IMG/VR virus record: IMGVR_UViG_3300025655_000024
Coordinates: 1-64,000 of that record
Length of the DNA: 64,000 bases
Origin: a virus
Strand: one strand, 5' to 3'
The number at the start of each line of letters is the position of its first letter. The stretch's first letter is position 1. The translations under genes were made by a program, and so were the position numbers. This document shows, one piece after another, positions 187-55,881 of the stretch. The notes under the pieces are model-generated. The model did no database searches. It was not told the origin of the DNA and was given only the letters and a program-made list of their open reading frames with translations.

Positions 187-630
187 ATGGACATACGGCT
201 GATACCCAAAAGCGAAGAGTGGTTTGACTTCTATCGTGGTCTTGGTGCTGAATTGATGAACGCATTGGATCTCAACGAAGAGGTGTTTCAAAGCCTCGTG
301 TTTGCTTTGTGGGAGGAAACGACCACGAGGGTTGGGCGTGCGCCATTACCTCTCATGGCTGATTGCATTTACATCATCGCTAAATTGACGGGCAACCGCA
401 AAAGCATCAGGGTGATGAAGAACGCCACCGAAGAGGTGTGGGGCAAACGCACAGACATTTTGCCGTTGGATAGGCGAAGGCAAAAACGAAGGTGGGTGTG
501 GGCGAAGAAGGATTTCATTTGTTCTTTGCTTGTGCTTGATGACGAATCATGGAGGGATTTTGTCGCTGAATGGACTGACGGGGAAACCGAAAAGGTTGTT
601 GCTGATTCGTATTGGGAGGAATCCGAATGA
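187..630 (+). CDS. Putative TFB/TFIIB cyclin-repeat-like protein
   Basis: This is a 147-aa protein. Residues of about 15-75 read like one cyclin-fold repeat of archaeal transcription factor B: a helix 'FYRGLGAELMNALDL', then 'EEVFQSLVFALWEE', then 'GRAPLPLMADCIYIIAKLTG'. In TFB the corresponding segment is typically G-K/R-x-P-x-x-L-A-A-A-x-x-Y-I-A-x-x-x-x-G. After it comes 'NRKSIRVMKNATEEVWGKR', at the place of the TFB recognition helix. The N-terminal zinc ribbon of a full TFB and the second cyclin repeat are absent. If real, it would redirect host RNA polymerase to viral promoters or modulate initiation. The ATG follows the previous stop by two bases, and the stop overlaps the next ATG. A helical protein of unrelated function cannot be excluded. 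Confidence 0.5.
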   Translation: MDIRLIPKSEEWFDFYRGLGAELMNALDLNEEVFQSLVFALWEETTTRVGRAPLPLMADCIYIIAKLTGNRKSIRVMKNATEEVWGKRTDILPLDRRRQKRRWVWAKKDFICSLLVLDDESWRDFVAEWTDGETEKVVADSYWEESE

Positions 631-830
631 ACATTGAAATTGGTTCTCGTTGGAGGAACAAATACACCCGTGAGCGATTCTTGGTGACAGACATAGAGGT
701 TGTTCCTTTCAGGGGATATAACATCACCACCGATGTGATCGTCGTGTTAAACACCGACACCGACGAAGATGGGCGTTGGGACATATCGTTCTTCAAACAA
801 GCATTTGACCCCCTTGAAGAAGAGGAATGA
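627..830 (+). CDS. Small hypothetical protein, possible SH3-like fold
   Basis: The protein has 67 residues and starts at an ATG that overlaps the previous stop (ATGA), with a GGGAGGA ribosome-binding site six bases upstream; an in-frame start further upstream would lie inside the previous gene and has no better site. The sequence is a run of short predicted beta strands (IEIGSRWRN, RFLVTDIEV, DVIVVLNT, RWDISFFKQAF) followed by a glutamate tail. This resembles small phage SH3-like barrel proteins that begin G-x-x-W/R, but I cannot assign a family. It is co-transcribed with the flanking genes. Confidence 0.6.
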   Translation: MNIEIGSRWRNKYTRERFLVTDIEVVPFRGYNITTDVIVVLNTDTDEDGRWDISFFKQAFDPLEEEE

Positions 831-832
831 AC

Positions 833-2272
833 ATGGAGTCCATTTCTTTCAGCACAATCGCCGCATCATGCCGTCAGGCATACAATGGTGTCAAAAGACC
901 CACGATTGTGTTGGAGGGTTTGTTCAACCATTCTCCCAAAGACATAGAGGACATCATACGCTTTTGCTACGAGGATAACCGCATTGAACAATCCTTGAGC
1001 GATGAGGATTTACGGGAAATTTACCTATGCTTAACAGACGCTTATCCCGAAGAGGTTGAGGACAACCCTGACCTCGTTCAAATCATCACCCACCTTTCTC
1101 TCGCTGATGAAACGAGAGTCAGCCTGTCATTTGTGCTGAAACAGATGAGTCAAATGTTCAAGGCTGACAACAACAAAACCCGGTCAGTCATTATGAACGG
1201 GCTGTTGAGGCGTGTCAATCAGCGTGATGCCTATTGGCTTCTTATCCGCATGATACGAAGGAGGAATCCTTTCAGGCGGTATCACATTCTCACGGCTCTC
1301 GCCAATCACTACAATCTGTTCTATGAACGGCTCAAGCGTGAAGCCAATTTCATCCCGTTGGTGACTTTGGCTCAACGCCTCAAAGAAGGAAACGATCTCA
1401 TTGGTGTGCCTTCAATCGGAAGCCCGTTGGTTATTCCTTTGCCTGTCAAAGCACCAATCAAGGAACGCTTCGGTGCATACCTTGAGGTGATTCGTGGTGA
1501 ACGGCTCACTATTCACAAAGAAGGCGACATGATTCTCATGTGCGATGTCAATGGACTGTTCCTTGAGGAAACGATAGAGGGCCAACACGAATTGGGTTCA
1601 CTCATCAGCGATGGTATTTACCTCATTGAGCGCGTTGTTCAGGATGACTTCCCGCTACGCTTGGTGGATGTCCTTTACCACAAAGAAGGGCATCACGATG
1701 AGGACTTTGAAACAAGACGGGATTGGTTGCAGGAACACGCTTCGTTGCCCAATTTCTTCAAGCCAATGTATTGGTGCGAGAACCCTCAACAGATTCAGCA
1801 CAAAACGCCACCAAATAGCGTGGCTTTCCTTTATGCTCGTGATGGCAAATTGACATACAACAACACCAAAGAGGAAGTGGTGCGTTTTAGCACAAAGAGC
1901 AGGGGTGAAATCCTCCGGGTGATTGGAGGTATTTACACTCAAGACCATGTGCGTGGTTTAGTGATGAATCGTTGGCGCGTGTCGGCTCGTGATGGCTTAG
2001 ACTCGTATTATGAAGTGGGGGAAATTCAAGCCGAGGACATTGAAATGGAGAAGCGGTTGGCGAGGCTAACCGAACCCTCAAAGGCTTTCGTGGGCGAGGT
2101 TGCCCAAATGAAAGGGGCGACATTTGTTGAGGTTGAATTGCACCACGCCGACTACGATCATCGTGGGATTTCAATATCAGGGTCTATTGTTGGCATTGTG
2201 TCCAATGCGGGATTCAGCGATGTCGTTGCTGTTGAGGACTTGGAGTGGTTGGCGGGTGATGTGGATGGCTGA
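833..2272 (+). CDS. ATP-dependent DNA ligase-like protein lacking the catalytic lysine
   Basis: The 479-aa protein follows the layout of archaeal/eukaryotic ATP-dependent DNA ligases. Residues of about 90-170 match the helical DNA-binding domain (the 'LLRRVNQRDAYWLLIRMIRR' region). Residues of about 205-310 match the adenylation domain, and the C-terminal 150 residues look like an OB fold. The motif I position, normally K-x-D-G-x-R, reads V-I-R-G-E-R, so the nucleotide-accepting lysine is a valine (codon at 1487) and the aspartate is arginine (codon at 1493). Motif III D-G-E reads D-G-I. Motif IIIa is recognisable as 'LRLVDVLYHKEG...RRDWLQEH'. Catalysis by the normal route is not expected; nick binding or a structural role is possible. 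ATG 833 is preferred over 827 because AGAGGA lies six bases upstream. Confidence 0.7.
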   Translation: MESISFSTIAASCRQAYNGVKRPTIVLEGLFNHSPKDIEDIIRFCYEDNRIEQSLSDEDLREIYLCLTDAYPEEVEDNPDLVQIITHLSLADETRVSLSFVLKQMSQMFKADNNKTRSVIMNGLLRRVNQRDAYWLLIRMIRRRNPFRRYHILTALANHYNLFYERLKREANFIPLVTLAQRLKEGNDLIGVPSIGSPLVIPLPVKAPIKERFGAYLEVIRGERLTIHKEGDMILMCDVNGLFLEETIEGQHELGSLISDGIYLIERVVQDDFPLRLVDVLYHKEGHHDEDFETRRDWLQEHASLPNFFKPMYWCENPQQIQHKTPPNSVAFLYARDGKLTYNNTKEEVVRFSTKSRGEILRVIGGIYTQDHVRGLVMNRWRVSARDGLDSYYEVGEIQAEDIEMEKRLARLTEPSKAFVGEVAQMKGATFVEVELHHADYDHRGISISGSIVGIVSNAGFSDVVAVEDLEWLAGDVDG

Positions 2273-2885
2273 CGATTATTTCAAGCGAAGCAATTGGAAT
2301 AGGAAAGACGAATACTACACGCCTCCTATTTTGGTTGAAGCCATCCTCCCCCACATTGTTGGGAACCCTAAAGAAACAACGGTTTGGTGTCCTTTTGATA
2401 CCGATAAAAGTGCGTTTGTTGAAATTTTGCGGGAACGAAATTTCAAAGTCATCCATTCTCACATTTGGGAGGGGAAGGATTTCTTTCAATACGAACCCGA
2501 AGAAGAATACGATTACATCATTTCAAACCCTCCTTTCACGAGGAAATTGGATGTTTTCAAGAGGCTTTTTGATTTGGGGAAGCCCTTTGCTATGGTGATG
2601 GGGCTTCCCATTTTGAATTATCAAGAGGTTGGGGATTTCTTCACGAAACATCAACAACAAGGGCATCACATTCAATTGCTGATAGTGGACAAAAAGGTGT
2701 CCTTTGACGGCAATACCGCCTCTTTCAACAATTCGTTTTTCTGTTGGGATATGCTACAAAGGGACATTGTTTTTCACCATTTAGCCCACAACAATTCAGG
2801 GGACGATCACATTGGGAGTCGCATGAAAGTGGATTCCGAAGAGAGAGGAATAGAACCGCTACCCGTGAGGTGGTTATTTGATTGA
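2265..2885 (+). CDS. NPPF-type DNA adenine-N6 methyltransferase-like protein
   Basis: The 206-aa protein has the layout of a compact phage methyltransferase family. It starts with D-E-Y-Y-T-P-P at about residue 14-20. A W-C-P-F-D segment stands in place of the usual SAM-binding G-loop, and 'SHIWEGKDFF' follows. Motif IV is I-S-N-P-P-F, the class signature for methylating an exocyclic amino group. 'RLFDLGKPFAMVMGLP' follows, as in that family. The likely substrate is adenine in DNA, although some members are annotated differently. There is no restriction endonuclease next to it, so protection of viral DNA from host restriction is the simplest role. The ATG overlaps the end of the ligase-like gene by 8 bases. 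Confidence 0.7.
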   Translation: MADDYFKRSNWNRKDEYYTPPILVEAILPHIVGNPKETTVWCPFDTDKSAFVEILRERNFKVIHSHIWEGKDFFQYEPEEEYDYIISNPPFTRKLDVFKRLFDLGKPFAMVMGLPILNYQEVGDFFTKHQQQGHHIQLLIVDKKVSFDGNTASFNNSFFCWDMLQRDIVFHHLAHNNSGDDHIGSRMKVDSEERGIEPLPVRWLFD

Positions 2886-3252
2886 TGAAGAAACAATTAC
2901 CATGCTGTTGCTCGCAACCAACGCACGCTTCCGCATAGGTGTGCGATTCACCACAAATAACCAAACGGGCTATGAAATCCGACCCGAATGTATTCTTTTT
3001 GGGAGGAACACGATACCCGAAGCCGTTCAATTGGTCTTGAAGGAGAACGGTTTGCCCGTTCAAAATCAATTCACTGATGCGGTGCATCTTCAAAAAATGC
3101 TGAGAATCACAAAGGCTTGGCGGGACTTTACCAAAGAGCCTGAAGGGTGGCTTCTTGTAGCGCGGTTTAATGGGCGTGTTCCCGAATTGAAATTCCACGA
3201 GGATGTTGAACAGGCATTGAATGTGTTTGAGGATGATGATGATGCTTTATGA
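2878..3252 (+). CDS. Hypothetical protein, 124 aa
   Basis: I do not recognise this protein. It has a beta-rich N-terminal half (ARFRIGVRFTTNN..YEIRPECILFGRN) that faintly recalls a LAGLIDADG-type half-domain, but the diagnostic acidic helix is missing. A helical middle and an acidic tail (VFEDDDDAL) follow. The chosen start is TTG at 2878 with GAGG just upstream, overlapping the previous stop by 8 bases; ATG 2902 is the alternative and has no clear ribosome-binding site. Codon use and overlap pattern match its neighbours, so it is likely a real operon member. Confidence 0.6.
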   Translation: MIDEETITMLLLATNARFRIGVRFTTNNQTGYEIRPECILFGRNTIPEAVQLVLKENGLPVQNQFTDAVHLQKMLRITKAWRDFTKEPEGWLLVARFNGRVPELKFHEDVEQALNVFEDDDDAL

Positions 3253-3817
3253 CGAAACGCCCACAGAAGAGGCGGTGGATTGGTTTGCCGTCTGTCCGAA
3301 TTCGGATTCTCAATACGAAGCACCACTCCCAACCGGGCTGTTTGATGTGCTGAGGTTATACACTAACGAATGGGATCGTGCCGTTGTTGGTAAAGCCATC
3401 AAGCACACGAAAGGAAACATTCTCTTCGGACTTCATGTTTTGTTGCGAACCTTCCCCAACAACATCGCGCTTGAAATGTGTGCGCGTGAATTCGCCCATC
3501 GCATCCCGTTCCGTTTGCTCGCTGACATAATCGCGCTTTCGCATAACGGAACAAGTCGCAAACGCTTGGTGTTTCCCGACAAACGACAGAAGCCTGTGCC
3601 TTCTTCGTTGCTCAAGGCATTCGGTTTGCGAGGTTCGGAAAGTGGGTGGTTTGACCGCTTGGCTCAGAACGAGGATTTTGTTCGCTCGGTGGGCTTGAAT
3701 ATCAAAAACGAGGATTGGGAATTTATCACCATGTATGATAAAGCAACGCTGTTCAAATCGGACACAAAACAAAGCACTGCGAGCCATAGAGGTGCAAATC
3801 AGGGGGCTTTGTTTTGA
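3242..3817 (+). CDS. Hypothetical protein, 191 aa
   Basis: This is a predicted mostly helical protein of unknown family. Features are a tryptophan/leucine-rich segment at about residue 30-90 (VLRLYTNEWDRAVVGKAIKHT), a basic stretch 'SRKRLVFPDKRQK' in the middle and a low-complexity end. Five in-frame ATGs cluster at 3221-3242; the last is chosen because GAGG lies nine bases before it. It is the last gene before a 50-base gap that holds a TATA box, so it probably ends the first transcription unit of the early arm. Confidence 0.55.
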   Translation: MLYDETPTEEAVDWFAVCPNSDSQYEAPLPTGLFDVLRLYTNEWDRAVVGKAIKHTKGNILFGLHVLLRTFPNNIALEMCAREFAHRIPFRLLADIIALSHNGTSRKRLVFPDKRQKPVPSSLLKAFGLRGSESGWFDRLAQNEDFVRSVGLNIKNEDWEFITMYDKATLFKSDTKQSTASHRGANQGALF

Positions 3818-3834: not shown

Positions 3835-3874
3835 ACAAGACCCTATTGGCAGGGGTGCTAACGGAGGAATGACG

Positions 3875-4822
3875 ATGACGCAATTGTGGCTCAAATACCG
3901 ACCCGATACGATGAGGAACATGGTTGGGCTTGAGGGCTTGAAGAAAGACGCTCAGTCATGGGCTGTGGCAGGTTCTCTCCGCTGTGGTGGTGTCATTTTC
4001 AACGGTAAGGCGGGAACGGGTAAAACCACCGCCGCACGAGCCATCGCCAAGGATATGCTTGGTTCGGCTTTTGAAGCCAATTTTCATGTGTTCAACGCCT
4101 CCGATGATAGAGGCATCAATTTTGTCCGTGAACGCCTAAAGCCCTTGGCTGAACAGAAGGCTACGGGTGCTAATTTCAAAGTCATCAACCTTGACGAAGC
4201 CGATGGTCTAACAAACGATGCTCAGGAGTCCATGCGACAAATCATTGAGATCACGAGCAAACACACTTTATGGATTCTCACCTGCAACCGTGTGAGCCGT
4301 ATCATCCCTGCACTTCGCTCAAGACTCCCCACATACAATTTTGGTGGGCTTGAAGGCGAGGATGCCGAGTCTTTCTTGGAGAATGTCATTGAAACCGAGA
4401 ATTTCCCGCAGGATTGGGTATATAGCGTCAAATCCTTGATTGGTAAAACCAACGGTGACTTGCGTGCGTGCCTAAAGACCATGCAAATTTGTGACCCAAC
4501 AGACCCAAAGGCACTCGCCCTCACAATCGCACAGGATTATAGTGCGGTCATCGCACTCTATGACTCCATCGTTCAGCACGAATGGGAGGATTGTTTCACT
4601 CAAATTGACATTATTGACCGTCAGGGCGTTGTGCGTGACGAGGTTATTGATGCAATACACGAAGCGTGCATGGAAAAATACAAAGCGGGCGACATTGGCA
4701 TCCAAATCGCCCTTCTCCACCTGCTGATTCTCGGTCAGTGGGCGGCAAAATCGGCTGATTGGGTATCAGGCGACATCCTATTCCTCCGATCAATGATTGG
4801 GGATTATAACAAGAGGTGTTAA
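3875..4822 (+). CDS. rfcS: Replication factor C small subunit (sliding-clamp loader)
   Basis: This 315-aa AAA+ ATPase loads the PCNA-type clamp encoded three genes downstream. Visible motifs are the N-terminal RFC box (W-L-K-Y-R-P), Walker A G-K-A-G-T-G-K-T at residues 44-51, Walker B 'VINLDEAD', a sensor-1-like 'WILTCNRVSRI' and a C-terminal helical collar. The SRC motif that carries the trans-acting arginine finger reads R-S-R-L: the arginine is kept and the cysteine is leucine. No large RFC subunit is present in the window, so it may act as a homo-oligomer or with the host subunit. ATG 3875 is preferred over 3869 because GGAGG is seven bases upstream of it but only one base from 3869. Confidence 0.95.
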   Translation: MTQLWLKYRPDTMRNMVGLEGLKKDAQSWAVAGSLRCGGVIFNGKAGTGKTTAARAIAKDMLGSAFEANFHVFNASDDRGINFVRERLKPLAEQKATGANFKVINLDEADGLTNDAQESMRQIIEITSKHTLWILTCNRVSRIIPALRSRLPTYNFGGLEGEDAESFLENVIETENFPQDWVYSVKSLIGKTNGDLRACLKTMQICDPTDPKALALTIAQDYSAVIALYDSIVQHEWEDCFTQIDIIDRQGVVRDEVIDAIHEACMEKYKAGDIGIQIALLHLLILGQWAAKSADWVSGDILFLRSMIGDYNKRC

Positions 4823-4824
4823 AA

Positions 4825-6177
4825 TTGACAGAAGAAAGAGAAATTGGATATGAATGTATTGAAGAAGCCGCCACCATTTTGGGCGTTGAAAGGGCAGAAG
4901 CCCTTGAGTCCTTTGGCTCGTGGATGGGAGAGGTTTTCCCTGATATGTGGGCTGAATGTGGACAAGACGCGCTGAACCTTGAGGATGAGGACTTCAATCA
5001 CTATGCGGATATGTTCGTTCTCGCTGTGCGACCTTCGGGTGGTTCAAGCGGTGGCGTTGGCGGTGGTCGTGGTGAGGAATGGGTCGGTGCTTTCATCGGC
5101 TTTGACCGAAGGACTGACATGATGAAGCGAAAGCGTGACATGGCAATTGACATCGCAACGGCTGATTTGAGTGGTGCTATTCGCAACGGGTTCACCTACA
5201 ACGGCAACAAGGTCGGGATTGGTCGTGCTTTCACCAAAGACGGCAAATGGCTCATTGAACACTCTCAAGGTGTGTATCAAAGCGATAAGGATGCCGATTC
5301 TCAACCATCGTGGGTCATTCCCATCAACGAGAAGGTGAACATCTCCATGCTCAAGCCCGACAACACTCCTACACTCGCCTACATGACGAAGAGTGTTTGG
5401 ACTTTTCACGGCAACACCAAAGAGAAATTCTTGTCCGAAGGGCCAATCACCGTCAAGGTTGAAGGTCAATGGGAGGCGGCAGATCACGATTGGAAATTGT
5501 GGCAACCTGTTCTCATCAAGGGCGAATTTGACGCTGAGGGTTGGAATGGCTCAGGGGCAACGCTGTCCGTGAGCAACCCTGCCTGTGCCTACGGTCTTGA
5601 TTGGATTCCCGAACAGAATCGTGAAGCGGGTGCATCCCTCTTCAAACCTGAGCAATTCCTCACAACCTGTGGAGAAGCACTCGTCAATCTCGGTGATTTG
5701 CTTGACCATCACATGACAAACCGAACCGAGTCCTATGTGGACAGGAACGGTGTGCAACGCTACGATGGTGCTTTGGTTGTCATCGTTGGGGGTGTCATGG
5801 ACATCAATCACGAAGGTCGTGAGTCCCAATGGGATTCAACGGGTCGTGATTATTACCTCTCCATCTCCAATCAGGTGTTGCGACGAGAAGATCCCAACGC
5901 TCGCATTGGCATCGGTGTGAGTGGCATCCACCACGACAAATTCAACGCCATGAATGTGTTGAAGGGTGGCGAGTGGCTACCCTACGCTCGTGGTTCTCGC
6001 ATTTGGGTCGTTGGTCGCACCGACTCCTATACCAACACCAACGGTGAGGATGTCGTCAAAATCAACGCACATGGCATTTACGCCATTCCCAACAAATCTA
6101 TTCCCGCACAGAAACCGAGCGAGGACTCCAATGACCTCGGCAATCTCGGTGGATTTGGTGTCGGAGGTGATGAGTGA
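4825..6177 (+). CDS. Putative single-stranded DNA-binding (RPA-like) protein
   Basis: This 450-aa protein lies between the clamp loader and the RecA-like ATPase. The N-terminal 70 residues are acidic and helical. A glycine/serine linker (about residues 72-82) leads to two beta-rich regions of about 130 residues that could be OB folds, for example 'YDGALVVIVGGVMDIN' to 'SRIWVVGRTDSYTN'. The C-terminus is a flexible glycine-rich segment ending G-G-D-E, like the acidic tails of ssDNA-binding proteins, and the next protein ends the same way. The assignment rests on fold-like pattern and position, with no decisive motif. TTG 4825 is chosen because AGAGGTG lies six bases upstream; GTG 4816 lies inside that site. 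Confidence 0.45.
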   Translation: MTEEREIGYECIEEAATILGVERAEALESFGSWMGEVFPDMWAECGQDALNLEDEDFNHYADMFVLAVRPSGGSSGGVGGGRGEEWVGAFIGFDRRTDMMKRKRDMAIDIATADLSGAIRNGFTYNGNKVGIGRAFTKDGKWLIEHSQGVYQSDKDADSQPSWVIPINEKVNISMLKPDNTPTLAYMTKSVWTFHGNTKEKFLSEGPITVKVEGQWEAADHDWKLWQPVLIKGEFDAEGWNGSGATLSVSNPACAYGLDWIPEQNREAGASLFKPEQFLTTCGEALVNLGDLLDHHMTNRTESYVDRNGVQRYDGALVVIVGGVMDINHEGRESQWDSTGRDYYLSISNQVLRREDPNARIGIGVSGIHHDKFNAMNVLKGGEWLPYARGSRIWVVGRTDSYTNTNGEDVVKINAHGIYAIPNKSIPAQKPSEDSNDLGNLGGFGVGGDE

Positions 6178-7316
6178 TGTCAGGAACAGGATTTTTGGAT
6201 GGATTCAAGGAACAGAAGGGCAATTTTGAGCCACCCGTCAAGGGTGCTGAACCAAAGCCTGAGCCGAAGGCTCAAGCAAAGCCCACACCACAACAGCCAA
6301 AGCCACAGGCTGAGGCTAAACCACAACAACCCAAGCCGAAGCCACAGGCGGTTGCTCACGAAGCACCCACATTCAAAGCATCGGCTAACATGAACCCGGT
6401 CATCGCTCGTATGATTCAATCAGCACGCACTATGGCTGTCCGTCAAGACACCTTCGTGATGTGCGGTATCGCAGGGCATCCCAAAACGGGAAAAACGGGT
6501 ATGGTGCTTGACAGCCTCACCCCTGATGAAATCGCCAATGGTGCTGAAATTTGGCACATTGACTTTGACCTTGGTGGTGAAACCACGAAGGCGGCACACC
6601 ACAAGGATAAGGCGGCAAACATTGTTGTTCTCAATCCGTGGGTTTTCAATTATGGAAACAGTCGTGTGCCGTATGATTTCCCTGCAACCTTTCAGCAGAC
6701 CATTGACATTCTCAAGGCGGCACAAGCACAAATGGAGGAACAGAACAATTTCTTCATGGAACATGGTAAAATGCCCAAGCCATACCTCAAGACTGTCGTG
6801 TTTGATGGGGCAGACCATTGGCTTCACATCACTGAAACCTGCATGAAGGTGGATGATCTTGAATTGGGCGTTGATGGTATTGCTGTGGCCGGGAAGAAGG
6901 CAACCACACAGATTGGTCGTTTCAATTGGAACATTCGTGCGACCCGATACCAAACCGCTATGGTCGCTCTCCGTGAATTGTGTCGTGGTGGTGTTCATTC
7001 GTATGTTATCACTCACATGAAACCCGCCTATGACAACACGGGCAACGAATTGGTGGGTCAGGACTCACCCAAGTGGCTCAAGGACACCGAAGGACACCTT
7101 CAACAAGTGGTCTATACCGAAATTGAAGAGGAACGGGATGAGAACGGTGAATTGACGGGCGTTGTGCGTGGTTATGCACGAGTCGTGGCGAACCGCACTT
7201 CTCTCCAATCAGGTGGCCGACATTTGCTCTTTGAACGCAACAACGAGGGCGGAACATGGTATGGTTGGGATGGACTCAAGAAAGGTGAATTTGACATCGC
7301 AGGAGGTGATGAGTGA
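6177..7316 (+). CDS. RecA/RadA-type ATPase with a proline-rich N-terminus
   Basis: The 379-aa protein has a P-loop G-H-P-K-T-G-K-T at residues 100-107, a Walker B-like strand 'KTVVFDGADHWLH' and a further conserved strand 'GGVHSYVITHMKP'. This is the pattern of phage RecA-like ATPases (AAA_24/nucleotide-binding protein type). Residues of about 20-60 are a lysine/proline/glutamine repeat (PKPEPKAQAKPTPQQPKPQ-like), presumably a flexible linker. Position between the ssDNA-binding candidate and PCNA suggests strand annealing, recombination or replication-fork support. It ends with the same acidic G-G-D-E tail as the upstream gene. The start is ATG 6177, six bases after a perfect GGAGGTGA. Confidence 0.75.
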   Translation: MSGTGFLDGFKEQKGNFEPPVKGAEPKPEPKAQAKPTPQQPKPQAEAKPQQPKPKPQAVAHEAPTFKASANMNPVIARMIQSARTMAVRQDTFVMCGIAGHPKTGKTGMVLDSLTPDEIANGAEIWHIDFDLGGETTKAAHHKDKAANIVVLNPWVFNYGNSRVPYDFPATFQQTIDILKAAQAQMEEQNNFFMEHGKMPKPYLKTVVFDGADHWLHITETCMKVDDLELGVDGIAVAGKKATTQIGRFNWNIRATRYQTAMVALRELCRGGVHSYVITHMKPAYDNTGNELVGQDSPKWLKDTEGHLQQVVYTEIEEERDENGELTGVVRGYARVVANRTSLQSGGRHLLFERNNEGGTWYGWDGLKKGEFDIAGGDE

Positions 7317-8097: not shown

Positions 8098-10392
8098 ATG
8101 ATTGTTGAGCGATACATCACGAATGACGAAGAAGAACGCATCTTCACTCGGTGGCGAAAGCCTGACGGGTCATTGGTTGAGGAACACCATGACTTCGCAC
8201 CGTATTTCTATGTGCTTGACGATGAACGCCTGATAGAGCGTTTGACTCAAATGTATGATGCTCGTTTCTTCGGTTGGGAATTGACTGAGGACACAGCCAC
8301 TTCACTCCCAAGCAAAGAATACCCGCATGGTCGCACACTGCGAAAAGTGGTTGCACCGACCTCAAAGGACATACGAGCCATGCGAGAAATCGCAGGTGAC
8401 ACATGGGAGGCTGACATTCACTTCGTTGATCGTTTTTGCATTGACACATACGAGGCAGGTGATATGCCTGATTGGTTTGACAACATCGTTAAGGCGGGTG
8501 GCTTTGACATGGAGTGGAATCAAGACAATGAAATCACCATGCTCGGCTACACCACCGATGGTGTGGTTGCTCGCACATGGTCTTGGCATCCGACATATGA
8601 GGGTGTTCTCAATCCATATCGTTCCGAGAAGGAAATGCTTGAGGCGTTTGCACAAGCCTTTGAGGAATTGAACCCTGACTTGATTACAACATGGGCAGGA
8701 AATCGTGCTGATTGGCCGATGCTATACAAGCGGTTCAAGCATCACGGTCTTTCGTTGGATTGGGCTTCGCCAATTCAATGTGCTTCACCACCAATGACTC
8801 ACTTGCCGCGCTCAGGTGTCTATCAAGAAGGAACACAGATTATGCTTGGTCGCATGACTCTTGACTTGGCTGACAGGAATCATGGCTTTGAGCGTGTGTG
8901 GCGTGATGGAGGAAACGGTCAATTGTCCGACAGGCGACTTGGTGCGGTGGGGGAATTGTTGTTCCCCAACAACCCTGAGTGGTGGAAAGTGGACATGAAG
9001 GGCATGAGCCACCACGATATGTGGTTGGAGGATTTTGAGGCGTTCTGTGCGTATCACAGGGGCGACATTTTGCTCACCGATAGGATTGACCGTGAATACC
9101 ATGTCAGTCGCTTCTTCATGGCTTTACAGCGTGTCTGTGGGGTATCATTCTCATCCGTGTTCACGGTCAGTCGTTTCGCACGAGGACTCCTACGCAGGAG
9201 AGCAACATGGGCATCGCCAACCGGGACATATCACAAAGGAACGGATGGTGCATTGTCGGGTGGCTTTGTGGCTGAACCGAAAGTGGGTCGTTTCACCAAT
9301 GTAGGTGTCTTTGACTTCCGGGCTATGTATGCTGAAATCCAACGAGGAAACAACATCAGTCCCGAAACAATTCGCTACGAGGTTGGTGACGAAACACGGA
9401 CATTGGGCAACGGTTCAATTTGGTATCAAGGTAAAATGGGTGTTCTTCCCCAATTGCAGATTGATCTCGCTGAGGCGAGGAATGACGCAAAAGCCCAAAT
9501 GAAAAAATACGAACCCACTTCACAGGAATATGCGGGTTTCAACACACTCCAATTGGCATTCAAGCGCGCGGCAGCGTCAGTCTATGGCCTGATGGGACAC
9601 ACAGGACACGGTGAGAGCCACCTTGAAGTCGCATCAGCCATTACCTATGTTGGTCGCTCGTTGGTCGGGCGACTTATGGAAATATGTGATGACATGGGTT
9701 ATCCTGCCCTCGCAGGTCACACCGACAGTGCCTACATTTCAATCGGTGACGCTAACGGCGAGGAAATTGCCGAGCGTTTAACACAAATCATACAGAAGGA
9801 ATTTGATAGCGACAGGTTTGTTGTTGAATTTGAGAAATTTATGAAAGCATGGATTGCCGCAAAGAAGAACCGCAATTTTGGTTGGGTCGTTTGGCCGAAA
9901 GAATCACTCCATGTGACAGGATTTGAATACAAAAAGAGCAACGCATCACGAATCACTAAGCGTGTTCAGGGCGAAGCGTTCATGGCGTTGTGTCGGGACT
10001 TGGCTGATCGTGATGCCATTGATGACATTGTATATGGCATCATCAAAGAAGTCAAGTCGGGTTCTGTCCCTCGCAAACACTTGACTATGCGTTCACGCTT
10101 AGGTAAAGACCCCGAAAAATACGGACAGCAGGGTGGCTTTCAGGGGGCGGCGAAGAAATACAACCTCACAGCACCCAAGCATTTGCACTTCAAGGATGGC
10201 GATGGAGTCCCACACCTTTACACAAAGCGTGGAATTGAAGCATATCGCACCGATGAGGAATTGGCTTCACTCCCACTTGATTTGACAACAATCGTGCAAA
10301 AACAAGTGATTGCACCCGTTGCACTTATCTATGAGGCTATGGGTTGGAGTGAACCCACAGCCGATGCCTCAAGACCTGTTTCCCTATGGTGA
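8098..10392 (+). CDS. polB: Family B DNA polymerase with 3'-5' exonuclease domain
   Basis: The 764-aa protein is the replicative polymerase. Exonuclease motifs are visible: Exo I F-D-M-E (D137, E139), an Exo II-like 'TWAGNRADWP' and Exo III Y-H-R-G-D. Polymerase motif A is F-D-F-R-A-M-Y with catalytic D406. Motif B is K-R-A-A-A-S-V-Y-G from K489, where the usual asparagine before serine is alanine. Motif C is H-T-D-S: the first aspartate of the usual D-T-D is histidine (H541), while the catalytic D543 remains. Both metal-binding aspartates are therefore present. It lies directly after the clamp gene. ATG 8098 is preferred over GTG 8089 because GAGTGA lies five bases upstream. Confidence 0.93.
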   Translation: MIVERYITNDEEERIFTRWRKPDGSLVEEHHDFAPYFYVLDDERLIERLTQMYDARFFGWELTEDTATSLPSKEYPHGRTLRKVVAPTSKDIRAMREIAGDTWEADIHFVDRFCIDTYEAGDMPDWFDNIVKAGGFDMEWNQDNEITMLGYTTDGVVARTWSWHPTYEGVLNPYRSEKEMLEAFAQAFEELNPDLITTWAGNRADWPMLYKRFKHHGLSLDWASPIQCASPPMTHLPRSGVYQEGTQIMLGRMTLDLADRNHGFERVWRDGGNGQLSDRRLGAVGELLFPNNPEWWKVDMKGMSHHDMWLEDFEAFCAYHRGDILLTDRIDREYHVSRFFMALQRVCGVSFSSVFTVSRFARGLLRRRATWASPTGTYHKGTDGALSGGFVAEPKVGRFTNVGVFDFRAMYAEIQRGNNISPETIRYEVGDETRTLGNGSIWYQGKMGVLPQLQIDLAEARNDAKAQMKKYEPTSQEYAGFNTLQLAFKRAAASVYGLMGHTGHGESHLEVASAITYVGRSLVGRLMEICDDMGYPALAGHTDSAYISIGDANGEEIAERLTQIIQKEFDSDRFVVEFEKFMKAWIAAKKNRNFGWVVWPKESLHVTGFEYKKSNASRITKRVQGEAFMALCRDLADRDAIDDIVYGIIKEVKSGSVPRKHLTMRSRLGKDPEKYGQQGGFQGAAKKYNLTAPKHLHFKDGDGVPHLYTKRGIEAYRTDEELASLPLDLTTIVQKQVIAPVALIYEAMGWSEPTADASRPVSLW

Positions 10393-10397
10393 TATAC

Positions 10398-11351
10398 ATG
10401 ATTGAACACAAACCACCAAGAGCCTATCCTGTGCCGAACCGTGAAGGGTTGTTTTCAACATACGCATGGCATCCCGGCATGAAGCAAAATTACATTTTGA
10501 GGATGAGCAAATCCTCACTTGGCGACTCCACCTTTTGCGCTCAACAATACTTCATTGGTCGCATCATTGGCATGAAAGAGCCACAGAACGATGATATGCT
10601 GAGAGGAACAAATGTCCACGATATTGTTGAGCAATTCTATGACAATGTGGACATTGAATACGCAAAGGGTCTTGATGCCGATAAGGTGGATATGTATTTT
10701 CAAAATTGTATGCCCGATGCTACGGGACTCAAAAAGCCCCAAGAGGTTTTCACACTTGATGAGGATTTGCACTTAGACCGCTATCGTGTTGCTGAGGTGC
10801 AACGCTTCTTGTCGTCAGATCCCGACAATTTTTTGCCAACAGGCAACGAATTGTTGGTTGATGATGTGGTTGAGATTGAGGTGGATGGCATCAAGCAATT
10901 GGTTCACTTCACAGGGTTCATTGACAGAATTTTCACCAACCCTGACGGCACACTTCACATTCACGAATTGAAAACGGGTCTATGGAAGGATAAGGAATAC
11001 AAATACAACAGCATGAGGAAGGAAATGGCGTTTTATGTTTGGTTGCTTCGCAAAACGGACAATTCAGCACGAATCACTCATTGGGGTTGGGATCACACAA
11101 AGGGACTTCAAGGCGAAACAGAAGAAAGCGAGGTATTCCGTCATGTTGAACCCGTTAGGGTGAAAGAAATCGGTGAAATGCTCGCTGATATGCACAACCT
11201 GATTCGTATGCACAGGCGATACAAAGGCGACGGGGAGGGGTCAATGTTTGCTCTCATCCCTGAATATCGCCAATACAACATTTGCGACCCTTGGTGCGGA
11301 TTGAAAGAATTCTGTCCTCGCTACACTAAACACTTGGAGGAAGAAAAATGA
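10398..11351 (+). CDS. Cas4/RecB-like PD-(D/E)XK exonuclease with Fe-S cysteines
   Basis: The 317-aa protein contains the RecB-family nuclease motifs: R-G-T-x-x-H ('RGTNVHDIVE'), 'TGFIDRIF' with the metal-binding aspartate, H-E-L-K-T-G with E190 and K192, and the helix 'KEMAFYVWLLRK' in the place of motif QxxxY. An N-terminal cysteine (F-C-A-Q-Q-Y) and a C-terminal C-D-P-W-C-G-L-K-E-F-C cluster give four cysteines as in the 4Fe-4S cluster of Cas4/AddB-type nucleases. No other Cas protein or CRISPR array is present, so a role in end processing during replication or recombination is more likely than spacer acquisition. ATG 10398 has GGTGA five bases upstream and is preferred over 10386. Confidence 0.85.
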   Translation: MIEHKPPRAYPVPNREGLFSTYAWHPGMKQNYILRMSKSSLGDSTFCAQQYFIGRIIGMKEPQNDDMLRGTNVHDIVEQFYDNVDIEYAKGLDADKVDMYFQNCMPDATGLKKPQEVFTLDEDLHLDRYRVAEVQRFLSSDPDNFLPTGNELLVDDVVEIEVDGIKQLVHFTGFIDRIFTNPDGTLHIHELKTGLWKDKEYKYNSMRKEMAFYVWLLRKTDNSARITHWGWDHTKGLQGETEESEVFRHVEPVRVKEIGEMLADMHNLIRMHRRYKGDGEGSMFALIPEYRQYNICDPWCGLKEFCPRYTKHLEEEK

Positions 11352-52371: not shown

Positions 52372-55300
52372 TCACATAATAGGCATTTGTTCATCATCGC
52401 CTTCCTGTTCAACGATTACCTCTTTTTCTTCGGCCTGTTCCACATTCGTTTTGCGTGGCACTCTAAACACGGCACGACCACCTTCAATATCCAATTCGCC
52501 TTCAATTTCGTTGCCAACCTTATCCGTTCTCTTGACGGATATGTGCTTCGGCATATTCAACGGTGTTTCATCAGCCATTCCGTTAGGGTCAAACATGGGT
52601 ATGCCCTCGTCATCAACCAAAGAAGTCGGCCCTCGTGGTGAAGTCATCATATCCATTTCACCATCCCATCCGCCACCTGATAGTGAACCGCTAATTCTCG
52701 CAAGCGTTGTTCCCTGTTTGGTTTCAATGGTGTCATCATCAATTGCTTCATTGACCGACCATTCGCCTTCTTCTGTTCTTTCAAGGCCATATTCAGCACC
52801 ATATTGCTCAAGCATATTCTCCGTCAAGCCCTTGATTTTGTCAATAAGGCTCTCCGCTGAGAATGCTTTGTCAGCACTGATAATGTGTGATCGTGCGTGG
52901 CTCAATATGCTCGCCACCTTATCCTCTTCACCATTTGGCTCAACCAAAGTGGCTCGTGTGAATGTGAAGGTGTCCTTTGTCACGAATGGTGGTGGATAGA
53001 GGGATAACTCCCGCTGACCCATTTTTAGGAGGTGAACACCAACAGAACCCCAAACCCCAATCTGTTTTTCTGCGTGTCGTGCCAAAGGACTGTTTGGTTC
53101 AATGCTCATTACATTGAATGCGTTGCCATCCCACTCGCCTTTCACCACCAACGGTGAACGATGACCGGGATATTCCAACAGAATGTTTTCTCCATCGTTT
53201 GACACAAACGGCAGGGTTGTGCCTTTTGTCAAACCGTCTTGACTTGGAGTGTATAGCACCCACAAATGATGAGCCTCTTTGCCCTTAGCAAAGGTGGACT
53301 GTGCATCACGAATCCACAGGTCGCCACCAATCGCCTCACTATTTTTCAACAAACCCTCTTTGTCGGTAAATTTCGTATCAAGAGGCATAGGGAATGATAT
53401 GTTGTCATTCGTGTGATACATGGTGCGAAGGATTTGGAGTCTGTCCTCCAATGGATCCATGTGAATATCCTCGCCACGATGCACCAACAAATCCATAGCA
53501 CGCAGGTGCTTGCCCTTCAAGAAAGCATCAAACACAAAGTCGCCCATCTGTTCACGGACACCTTCTTTCACAATGTCAGGCAATTTGATTTCTTTGCCCT
53601 TCTTATCCTTAGCAGTGATTTTGCTGCCCTTCTTTTCAACAAACAAACGCTTCCCTTCGGGCTTCTTTTGAACGACCCAATCCCCTGAAAAGCCACGCAA
53701 TTCCTCAATGTCATCCAATTTATACACCGTGTGAGCAGGAACGAGTGGCGTTTCAAAAACACCTGTTGGTTCATAGTCATCGGCTTTGAACAAGTCACCG
53801 CTAATGACGGGAATGTGACCCATGTTGTTTGTGACATAAAGTGCAGGTGCATCCTTTTCCTTCGGTGCAATTGGGCGGTCAGCGTGAGTGGGGTCAATCA
53901 TCTGCAAATGACCTTCGTGGACTGTTTTTTGCAGGGAATCAAACGGCTTATCCTTGACTTCAAAGCGGATGCCGTTTGCGTCTTTATCCCACTTCCATGC
54001 CAATGTTGCGGGCATTTTGTGACCCCAAGCATCCATGTCACCACTCAAATATACAGGCGGAGTGGTGGCTTCACTTGTTGGGTGAACAGGCCCAACATTG
54101 ACTTCTTTTGGTGCTAACCCATCCCCAAGCACCATAGGTGCGAGCGTGCGAGTGTTCGGATTTGACCCACGCATCATGTAATAATTCGCTGCCTGAGCCA
54201 ATTGCTGAACATTCCCACGACTGATGGTATTCGCCAACACATTCTCATTTGGTGCATTGGTGCTGAATACATCCGAGCCATAGCGTTGCATGACTTCTTT
54301 TGCCATTTCTTGCATGACTTGACCCAAATTGGCATCCATTTTTTCATAGTGGTCGTTGTGATAAGTGTGATATTGTTCGTCACCGGGATGACGCTCTCGT
54401 GTTGGGCCGATGCGTGGCATACCCATGTCACTGTGGGATGAAATGATTCGCCCAAGTGGTTGTTGAGTGAGAGCCAACGAGGGAATAATCATCCGCTTGC
54501 CACTCCCTGCCACTTCGCTTGGGTGCAGGTGTTGTTGATTGGCAACGGTATTCCAAAGACCCCTTCGCCTGTTGAATGAACGCACACGGGGGTTCTCCGA
54601 TCCTGCCTCCCAACCACTCCCAATTGCTGATTTATGTGGATGGTTTTGCATAACAGGGTGATTGATGGTCTGTGGGAAAAATGACGAACCACTTCCGTGA
54701 AACGAATCGTCTTGGTCGTTTAGAGGATGGGTTCGGTCTGTCAAATATCCCATTAGTGCTTCACCAAGCCAACCCTCAAACGCTGCGGGATAGGATTGAG
54801 TGAGAGCCGACACCAACGAATTGGCATCACGCCCAACACCGCCCCAAAATTGATACGGACTCCAATAATGATGGGTGTGTGATGGTTCAATGCCACCTTC
54901 GTCATTCAACACAAACGGTGACTTAAAGTGATTCAAACCTTGACGAACAGGCTCAGGACTCACAGGCCCATGATGGTGTGAAGCCCGTTCCCACCATTTC
55001 GCAAGTGGAGTCATACGCTCAAACCAATTGCGCTTTGCACGATCCCATGATATTCCCGCATCGGCTTTGAAATTGTTGGCAATACGCCTTGCTTCAGGGC
55101 TTTCTTCACCTTCTGTTTGCCCCATTTTCTTGAGCAATTCCATGAAAGCGTGCCGTTGCTCAGGGGTTTGCCACTCAGTCCCAAACAGGTATGAAAGCAA
55201 ACCAAGACGGCTTGTGTTTTTCGCCATCATCCCCCCTTTCTGTTGAACATTTGCACCCCATTGGCGTGCCTTCATTTCACGATATTCCTCATCGCTCAAA

Positions 55301-55881
55301 AACGAATTGCGGTCATTACGGTCTTGTTGATACAAGTCCATCATGCTCTCGCTTGGGCGACCAAGCAAATCCTCGTATTCAAAGGGAACAATATCACGCC
55401 TCTCCATTTCTTGCATGGTGTGAAGCATATTGTGTCCATCCTCATCCTCTTTGATCATTTCAAACAAATGCTCAATGAAATGAGGGTCGCCCCATTGTGA
55501 ACCATGTAGCAAAGGCATTACACAGTTATCCCAAGACAACGGGTGGCGTTTGCCAAATGGATTTTCCTCATGTGCTTTCGGCCAATCCTCAGCGTAATTC
55601 GTGCTAAATCGCCGTTGTCCTGCAACATAATCGTCATACCCATCGGGCAAATTGAGGTTTGAAAGAATGCTTGGTTTATCCAAATCCTGCATTCGGTATG
55701 GCGGTTGTTCCATAGCCATTGGCATCATAGCCATGAGTGCGGAATCCTCCTTCTCAATGGCTTTACCGTCAGCATAGAATTCCTCACACGCTTTGAGGTA
55801 AAGCGTGGAGTCAAAATTAGGGTTGGTGTGAAAAGAAACCAAAGCATCGGTTCGGATGCGAATGAATTCTTCACGGTTCAC
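52372..55881 (-). CDS. Large head-module protein with an internal DNA-ligase-like domain
   Basis: The 1169-aa protein lies between portal and protease. Residues of about 720-880 read like the adenylation domain of an ATP-dependent DNA ligase: 'DWVVQKKPEGKRLFVEKKG' with K-P-E-G-K-R as motif I (lysine at residue 740, codon 53662-53664; D replaced by E), 'FVFDAFLKG' at motif III, 'LRAMDLLVHRGEDIHMDPLEDR' at motif IIIa, and 'GGDLWIRDAQSTFAKGKEAHHLWVLY' at motifs IV-V. The catalytic lysine is kept, but the motif III and IV glutamates are F and G. An OB-like region follows (about 890-990). The first 700 residues are helical and unassigned, with many H, M and W. The C-terminus is acidic. Start GTG 55881 follows GAGGTGA. 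Confidence 0.7.
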   Translation of the reverse strand: MNREEFIRIRTDALVSFHTNPNFDSTLYLKACEEFYADGKAIEKEDSALMAMMPMAMEQPPYRMQDLDKPSILSNLNLPDGYDDYVAGQRRFSTNYAEDWPKAHEENPFGKRHPLSWDNCVMPLLHGSQWGDPHFIEHLFEMIKEDEDGHNMLHTMQEMERRDIVPFEYEDLLGRPSESMMDLYQQDRNDRNSFLSDEEYREMKARQWGANVQQKGGMMAKNTSRLGLLSYLFGTEWQTPEQRHAFMELLKKMGQTEGEESPEARRIANNFKADAGISWDRAKRNWFERMTPLAKWWERASHHHGPVSPEPVRQGLNHFKSPFVLNDEGGIEPSHTHHYWSPYQFWGGVGRDANSLVSALTQSYPAAFEGWLGEALMGYLTDRTHPLNDQDDSFHGSGSSFFPQTINHPVMQNHPHKSAIGSGWEAGSENPRVRSFNRRRGLWNTVANQQHLHPSEVAGSGKRMIIPSLALTQQPLGRIISSHSDMGMPRIGPTRERHPGDEQYHTYHNDHYEKMDANLGQVMQEMAKEVMQRYGSDVFSTNAPNENVLANTISRGNVQQLAQAANYYMMRGSNPNTRTLAPMVLGDGLAPKEVNVGPVHPTSEATTPPVYLSGDMDAWGHKMPATLAWKWDKDANGIRFEVKDKPFDSLQKTVHEGHLQMIDPTHADRPIAPKEKDAPALYVTNNMGHIPVISGDLFKADDYEPTGVFETPLVPAHTVYKLDDIEELRGFSGDWVVQKKPEGKRLFVEKKGSKITAKDKKGKEIKLPDIVKEGVREQMGDFVFDAFLKGKHLRAMDLLVHRGEDIHMDPLEDRLQILRTMYHTNDNISFPMPLDTKFTDKEGLLKNSEAIGGDLWIRDAQSTFAKGKEAHHLWVLYTPSQDGLTKGTTLPFVSNDGENILLEYPGHRSPLVVKGEWDGNAFNVMSIEPNSPLARHAEKQIGVWGSVGVHLLKMGQRELSLYPPPFVTKDTFTFTRATLVEPNGEEDKVASILSHARSHIISADKAFSAESLIDKIKGLTENMLEQYGAEYGLERTEEGEWSVNEAIDDDTIETKQGTTLARISGSLSGGGWDGEMDMMTSPRGPTSLVDDEGIPMFDPNGMADETPLNMPKHISVKRTDKVGNEIEGELDIEGGRAVFRVPRKTNVEQAEEKEVIVEQEGDDEQMPIM

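What the first reader, a model, noticed from the sequence alone, without database searches (positions are those of the whole stretch)
833..2272. Early ligase-like protein lacking the catalytic lysine
The 479-aa early protein keeps the helical DNA-binding domain and overall ligase domain order, but motif I is V-I-R-G-E-R instead of K-x-D-G-x-R, and motif III is D-G-I. It appears to be a pseudo-ligase kept in the operon with an intact long frame, so selection probably acts on another property such as nick or clamp binding. Together with the late ligase-like domain, the window holds two separate, differently degenerate ligase relatives.
Basis: partly seen in the sequence, partly recalled or inferred. 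Interest (0 to 1): 0.65.

Follow-up and report, generated by a model that had tools for sequence, protein, structure and literature searches.

The report
Conserved dead DNA ligase, archaeal virus
A lineage of marine archaeal tailed viruses keeps, under strong selection, a complete DNA-ligase-shaped protein whose whole catalytic centre has been lost, and it keeps this protein even in relatives that no longer carry a recognisable DNA polymerase of their own, so the protein must do something other than seal DNA.

Summary
The 479-aa protein (833-2272; probable true start 827, 481 aa) is an open, three-domain homologue of archaeal/LigI-type ATP-dependent DNA ligases: Foldseek E 1.5e-19 over the whole chain, profile-profile E 7.5e-6 to cellular archaeal ligases and 2.9e-13 to magrovirus-like ligases. 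It is catalytically dead. In 51 full-length relatives the motif I lysine is deleted in 51/51 and motif III Glu is Gly in 51/51; catalytic residues of motifs IV and VI and the first Lys of motif V are gone. dN/dS is 0.05-0.08 in close pairs.

The late ligase-like domain is also intact in those sisters and degenerate here, so both ligases went silent in one lineage. Half of this lineage (clade B, 10 records of 76-108 kb) has no detectable PolB or clamp loader, yet keeps the pseudo-ligase beside a RecA/Sak4-like protein, a Cas4-like nuclease and two conserved unknowns. A clamp role is therefore unlikely, and nick binding is weakened by lost positive charge. Most likely it is a non-catalytic scaffold of the viral recombination module; this function is inferred.

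The parts
827..2272 (+). Pseudo-ligase ORF (481 aa from ATG 827, which overlaps the upstream stop as ATGA; 479 aa if started at 833)
   Evidence: family of 53 distinct homologues
833..1402 (+). N-terminal all-helical domain (residues 1-190), equivalent to the ligase DNA-binding domain
   Evidence: AF2 model pLDDT 88.7, Foldseek whole-chain match to archaeal ligases, hhalign
995..1054 (+). Most conserved block L-S-D-E-D-L-R-E...L-T-D-x-Y-P-E-E, at the position of the ligase DBD first helix-loop-helix; K-K of intact magrovirus-like ligases replaced by an invariant D-E-D
   Evidence: D, E, D, R, E invariant 53/53; comparison with intact viral ligases
1403..1861 (+). Shortened nucleotidyltransferase domain (residues 191-343); the stretch between motifs III and IIIa is deleted (about 24 aa)
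1484..1504 (+). Motif I remnant E-V-I-R-G-E-R; catalytic Lys deleted, Asp replaced, Gly and downstream His kept
   Evidence: Lys gap 51/51, Asp 0/51, Gly 51/51, His 51/51
1607..1630 (+). Motif III remnant S-D-G-I-Y-L-I-E (D-T-E-I-Y-P in intact viral ligases): Glu to Gly
   Evidence: Gly 51/51 against Glu 68/68 in intact ligases
1862..2269 (+). C-terminal OB-fold domain (residues 344-479), motif VI lost, net acidic
187..630 (+). Conserved neighbour: single-repeat TFB/TFIIB-like (cyclin fold) protein, 36 of 37 loci
   Evidence: family profile vs PDB TFIIB 1d3u E 2.3e-6; synteny
2878..3252 (+). Conserved neighbour of unknown function (124 aa), 36 of 37 loci
4816..6177 (+). Conserved neighbour of unknown function (453 aa), 37 of 37 loci; no family or structure hit by sequence
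6174..7316 (+). Conserved neighbour: RecA/Sak4-like ATPase, 36 of 37 loci
   Evidence: phrog_124 E 2.8e-4
10386..11351 (+). Cas4-like nuclease (name given from sequence features, not tested against a library), in 25 of 37 loci within the stretch held
3869..4822 (+). RFC small-subunit-like clamp loader, kept only in the window's own clade of the lineage
53002..53757 (-). Late ligase-like domain (residues 709-960 of the 1169-aa protein at 52372-55881), also degenerate: motif I position K/M/R, motif III Glu lost, motif IV Lys to Arg

Best explanation
It is a true pseudoenzyme. The replicative ATP-dependent DNA ligase of an ancestral magrovirus-like virus lost its catalytic centre, most simply once, in the ancestor of this lineage, and the complete three-domain body was kept and is still under strong purifying selection. 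Shown: homology, positional orthology with an intact viral ligase, loss of the catalytic residues in all members, monophyly, purifying selection, and absence of any other recognisable ligase in the lineage records searched. Inferred: it now works as a non-catalytic scaffold or adaptor of the viral recombination/strand-annealing module (RecA/Sak4-like protein, Cas4-like nuclease and the 453-aa and 124-aa proteins). The helical domain would still contact DNA or a partner through its second helix-loop-helix and the invariant acidic first one, while the NTase and OB domains serve as protein-binding surfaces rather than closing around a nick. Sealing of viral nicks would be left to the host ligase.
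For: Fold: 41-sequence AF2 model, pLDDT 88.7; the top 50 listed PDB matches are all ATP-dependent DNA ligases, archaeal first, best E 1.5e-19 over 556 columns. Sequence: a profile finds LigIV in PDB; hhalign E 7.5e-6 to archaeal ligases against 0.2-0.7 for shuffled controls, 2.9e-13 to magrovirus-like ligases. Catalysis lost in all. Orthology: intact ligase at the head of the same order, ligase - small protein - ATPase - RFC - about 410-aa protein - RecA-like - clamp - PolB, in sister viruses whose TerL is 39-40% identical. One origin: pseudo clade support 1.0. Selection: dN/dS 0.046-0.081 for pairs with dS below 1. No substitute ligase: PF01068 over cut-off in 0 of 24 lineage records against 7 of 7 sisters; PF01653, PF09414 and RtcB absent from the lineage records searched. 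Link to recombination genes, not replisome.
Against: No biochemical data. The recombination link rests on synteny only, and operon neighbours in viruses can be transcriptionally rather than functionally linked. A RecA-like gene also sits near the intact ligase in the sister viruses, so part of the association is inherited. Two partner proteins are of unknown function. The records are metagenomic and their completeness is not given.
Confidence: 0.5

Rival explanations
1. Nick- or junction-binding clamp: the dead ligase still encircles nicked DNA and holds it without sealing, protecting or presenting it to the host ligase or to recombination proteins.
For: Whole three-domain ligase architecture is retained; Arg residues of the second helix-loop-helix are conserved (R139 and R149 positions).
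Against: NTase and OB domains have lost positive charge (mean net -8.0 and -8.4 against -2.1 and +2.3 in intact magrovirus-like ligases); K-K of the first helix-loop-helix became an invariant acidic D-E-D.
Confidence: 0.22
2. Antagonist of the host: the pseudo-ligase competes with the host DNA ligase for PCNA or for repair complexes and so blocks host Okazaki maturation or repair during infection.
For: Early gene, catalytically dead, and the lineage must rely on host ligation; clade B seems to rely on the host replisome altogether.
Against: The canonical ligase PIP-box region (Q-K-S-F-F in archaeal ligases) is not conserved; the virus itself appears to need host ligase.
Confidence: 0.13
3. Still an enzyme by another route: a migrated lysine (for example the invariant K310) or use of pre-adenylated ends.
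For: K310 is invariant in all 51 full-length members; pseudoenzymes with migrated residues are known (PMC10211241 abstract).
Against: Motif III Glu, motif IV Glu and Lys, the first motif V Lys and the motif VI residues are gone as well, so the adenylate pocket itself is lost; K310 lies after motif IIIa, away from motif I in sequence.
Confidence: 0.05
4. Decaying pseudogene on its way out.
For: All catalytic motifs are lost.
Against: 53 distinct relatives, nearly all about 460-486 aa long, 27-100% identical, dN/dS 0.05-0.08 in close pairs, invariant residues not found in ligases.
Confidence: 0.01

Closest known systems
ATP-dependent DNA ligase of magroviruses (order Magrovirales, described for Aoguangviridae and Apasviridae)
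   Same: Same fold, same domain order, same position in the early operon; profile-profile E 2.9e-13
   Different: Magrovirus-like ligases keep all catalytic residues in 68 of 68 sequences; the window family has lost them in 51 of 51, lacks about 24 aa between motifs III and IIIa and is far more acidic
Archaeal/eukaryotic LigI and LigIV type ATP-dependent DNA ligases
   Same: Helical DBD + NTase + OB, whole-chain structural match
   Different: No catalytic Lys, no adenylate pocket, acidic first helix-loop-helix
Catalytically inactive DNA ligase 4 acting structurally in NHEJ (PMC11754673, PMC3694833)
   Same: Precedent that a ligase body can support DNA repair without catalysis
   Different: Those are laboratory point mutants of an active enzyme; here loss is natural, complete and fixed across a virus lineage

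Membership tests
ATP-dependent DNA ligase (active enzyme) | Catalytic Lys in motif I K-x-D-G | tested here: not met
   Lys column is a gap in 51/51 members; Asp 0/51
ATP-dependent DNA ligase (active enzyme) | Motif III Glu | tested here: not met
   Gly in 51/51
ATP-dependent DNA ligase (active enzyme) | Motif IIIa aromatic-Asp | tested here: not met
   Asp kept 51/51 but the Phe is V/I/C/L
ATP-dependent DNA ligase (active enzyme) | Motif IV Glu and Lys, motif V Lys pair, motif VI Arg and Asp-Lys | tested here: not met
   None of the commonest residues at the motif IV Glu and Lys columns or the first motif V Lys column is the catalytic one; second motif V Lys in 18/51; motif VI Lys column is Ala in 45/51
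ATP-dependent DNA ligase (active enzyme) | Pfam PF01068 at or above the curated cut-off | tested here: not met
   0 of 24 lineage records; 7 of 7 sister records pass
DNA ligase fold family (by descent) | DBD-NTase-OB architecture | tested here: met
   Foldseek, top 50 listed matches all ATP-dependent DNA ligases, whole chain
DNA ligase fold family (by descent) | Sequence homology to bona fide ligases | tested here: met
   hhalign E 7.5e-6 and 2.9e-13
Pseudoenzyme under selection | Catalytic loss fixed in a clade with purifying selection | tested here: met
   Monophyletic, support 1.0; dN/dS 0.05-0.08 in close pairs
Order Magrovirales (the virus itself) | Relatedness to classified magroviruses | tested here: inconclusive
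   TerL 39-40% to magrovirus-like records and shared gene order; records ON649702, OR863078 and PP497040 are not held
Nick- or clamp-binding replisome factor | Binding to nicked DNA or sliding clamp | not testable with these tools
   Only indirect evidence

The most novel reading that the evidence does not exclude
A whole lineage of marine archaeal viruses silenced both of its ligases, the early replicative one and the one fused into a head-module protein, and turned the early one into an essential non-catalytic core component of a recombination-based replication module that has outlived the viral DNA polymerase and clamp loader. That would be, as far as the searches here show, the first natural, clade-wide DNA pseudo-ligase.
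Probability: 0.4. Interest if true: 0.78.

Novelty: new variant of a known kind. Interest (0 to 1): 0.63.

Why it matters
Published profiles describe magroviruses as encoding their own ATP-dependent DNA ligase (PMC10768690, PMC12999244, PMC10160649). Here is a related lineage in which the positional orthologue looks like a ligase in fold searches but cannot be expected to ligate, so annotation by fold would be wrong. The comparison of intact and dead orthologues at the same locus gives a ready test of what a ligase body does besides sealing, and a stepwise picture of a virus lineage giving up its replisome.

Tried and rejected
Pfam, PHROG and single-sequence PDB searches gave nothing for the protein. 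The PDB profile built from the wide family lost the ligase hit that the narrower one found, so sequence profiles are at their limit and structure plus profile-profile comparison carried the case. No homologue in INPHARED phages or in GTDB genome contigs. An alternative ligase (NAD-dependent, RNA ligase, RtcB) was sought and not found. The idea that the late ligase-like domain compensates was rejected: its motif I Lys is K in 11, M in 6 and R in 2 of 19, motif III Glu is lost in 19 of 19 and motif IV Lys is Arg in 20 of 20. The pseudogene idea was rejected on dN/dS. Literature searches found no described DNA pseudo-ligase family in archaeal viruses; subscription journals are largely not covered. 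The query used to fetch cellular archaeal ligases was written from memory and served only to find real sequences; all comparisons use the fetched ones.

Full report
Observation. The ORF at 833-2272 is open, 479 aa. An ATG at 827 overlaps the stop of the previous ORF as ATGA, so the product is probably 481 aa and the gene is translationally coupled into an early operon.

Family. Searches of IMG/VR gave 6, then 18, then 62 loci; a further scan returned the same number and no new contigs. From 60 of these I took 53 distinct proteins, nearly all 460-486 aa and 27-100% identical to the window protein. None has a Lys at motif I. The protein was not found in INPHARED phages nor in one genome for each of about 85,000 prokaryote species.

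Is it a ligase by descent? Yes. A profile of 14 members finds DNA ligase IV as its five best PDB hits (best E 0.024) and aligns the E-[IV]-x-x-G-E-R-x-x-x-H segment on motif I. Two AF2 models (pLDDT 76.5 and 88.7) match ATP-dependent DNA ligases over the whole chain in all of the 50 listed best PDB hits, archaeal enzymes first, best E 1.5e-19. Global TM-scores are only about 0.35-0.4, which I read as differing domain arrangement, since ligases are flexible. Against 12 archaeal cellular ligases fetched, hhalign gives E 7.5e-6 over 395 columns, against 0.2-0.7 for eight column-shuffled controls.

Positional orthologue. A search with cellular archaeal ligases found 11 viral contigs with a ligase; a second search with seven of those proteins found 251 matching stretches, of which 80 were kept. 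Their early region reads ligase - small protein(s) - ATPase - RFC - about 410-aa protein - RecA-like - clamp - PolB, the order of the window. They also carry GroEL- and TFB-like genes, and one has a PolB in two pieces; this fits the published description of Aoguangviridae and other magroviruses, although the type records were not held. Their TerL is 39-40% identical to the window's. Their ligases are intact: motif I Lys and Asp, motif III Glu, IIIa Phe-Asp, IV Glu and Lys, both motif V Lys, and VI Asp-Lys are present in 68 of 68 distinct sequences.

What is lost. hhalign between the pseudo-family and these ligases gives E 2.9e-13. In the merged alignment the Lys column is a gap in 51/51 full-length pseudo-ligases, the Asp is absent in all, motif III Glu is Gly in 51/51, the IIIa Phe is gone while its Asp stays in 51/51, motif IV Glu and Lys and the first motif V Lys are replaced, and motif VI is unrecognisable. 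A stretch of about 24 aa between III and IIIa is deleted. The pseudo clade is monophyletic with support 1.0 on a long stem, consistent with one loss; the long branch makes its exact sister uncertain.

What is kept. dN/dS is 0.046-0.081 in pairs with dS below 1. The most conserved block, L-[ST]-D-E-D-[LF]-R-E...L-T-D-x-Y-P-E-E, lies at the first helix-loop-helix of the DNA-binding domain, where intact viral ligases have N-N-[LI]-x-x-K-K. In ligases that motif faces the minor groove (established knowledge of LigI-DNA structures, not tested here). Net charge: DBD 0.4 against -2.6 in intact orthologues, NTase -8.0 against -2.1, OB -8.4 against +2.3. The DNA-encircling half has thus lost its positive charge, which speaks against a retained nick clamp.

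The second ligase. The late protein at 52372-55881 carries the other ligase-like domain and is present in 19 of 19 lineage records. In the window lineage its motif I position is K, M or R and the motif III Glu is lost. In the sister records that hold this part of the genome the same domain has intact motifs (K-Y-D-G-M-R, L-D-[AG]-E, F-D-[IV]-M, [AS]-E-G-V-V-I-K-D, K-W-[VI]-K-W-K-K) and passes the PF01068 cut-off in 5 of 7 records. So both ligases are intact in the sisters and both dead here. No lineage record has PF01068 over cut-off (0 of 24), and no NAD ligase, RNA ligase or RtcB was found in those searched. The lineage must use host ligase, or replicate in a way that needs none.

Context. 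In 37 loci the pseudo-ligase is accompanied by a TFB-like protein (36; TFIIB profile match E 2.3e-6), a 124-aa protein (36), a 453-aa protein (37) and a RecA/Sak4-like protein (36), with a Cas4-like nuclease in 25 within the stretch held; RFC (9) and clamp (7) occur only in the window's own clade. Ten clade B records of 76-108 kb have no PolB and no RFC anywhere, while the clade A and sister records searched have both. The pseudo-ligase therefore outlives the replisome it came from.

Mechanism. The best reading is a non-catalytic scaffold of the recombination/annealing module (0.5). Rivals are nick binding without sealing (0.22), interference with host ligase or PCNA (0.13) and residual chemistry (0.05). 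Catalytically inactive Lig4 supporting end joining is a precedent for a structural role of a ligase body (PMC11754673, PMC3694833; titles and abstracts seen). Shown here: homology, orthology, catalytic loss, selection, synteny. Inferred: the molecular function.

Limits. All viral sequences are metagenomic; completeness of records is not stated; the sister group is called magrovirus-like by gene content, not by comparison with type genomes; nothing has been tested at the bench.

Noticed in passing
window 52372-55881 (-): The 1169-aa protein in the structural module holds a second degenerate ligase domain whose counterpart in magrovirus-like viruses (L185-L189) has intact ligase motifs; parallel loss of two ligases in one lineage.
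   Followed up: yes
records behind L006, L014, L017, L033, L035, L040, L046, L055, L061, L065: Ten related viruses of 76-108 kb with no detectable PolB or RFC; may correspond to Poseidoniales viruses described as possibly using the host replisome (Satyavativiridae, PMC13108676), not testable here.
   Followed up: partly
window 187-630 (+): Single-repeat TFB/TFIIB-like cyclin-fold protein conserved next to the pseudo-ligase in 36 of 37 loci.
   Followed up: yes
window 3221-3817 (+): 198-aa protein matches the C-terminal part of a 280-aa sister-virus protein (L182:11054-11893, E 3e-13) that has an N-terminal P-loop; the P-loop part is missing here, so a neighbouring ATPase also seems to have lost its catalytic part.
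   Followed up: partly
window 2878-3252 (+): 124-aa conserved protein with a G-Y-E-I-R-P-like segment that recalls LAGLIDADG folds; not confirmed.
   Followed up: no
window 4816-6177 (+): 453-aa protein kept in 37 of 37 loci, no convincing hit in Pfam or PDB by profile; a good target for structure prediction.
   Followed up: partly
L010:909-2312: The pseudo-ligase frame ends after 294 aa although tblastn similarity continues downstream; a frameshift or assembly error.
   Followed up: no
L220 (contig of 184,733 bases): A magrovirus-type ligase on a contig about twice the size described for magroviruses.
   Followed up: no
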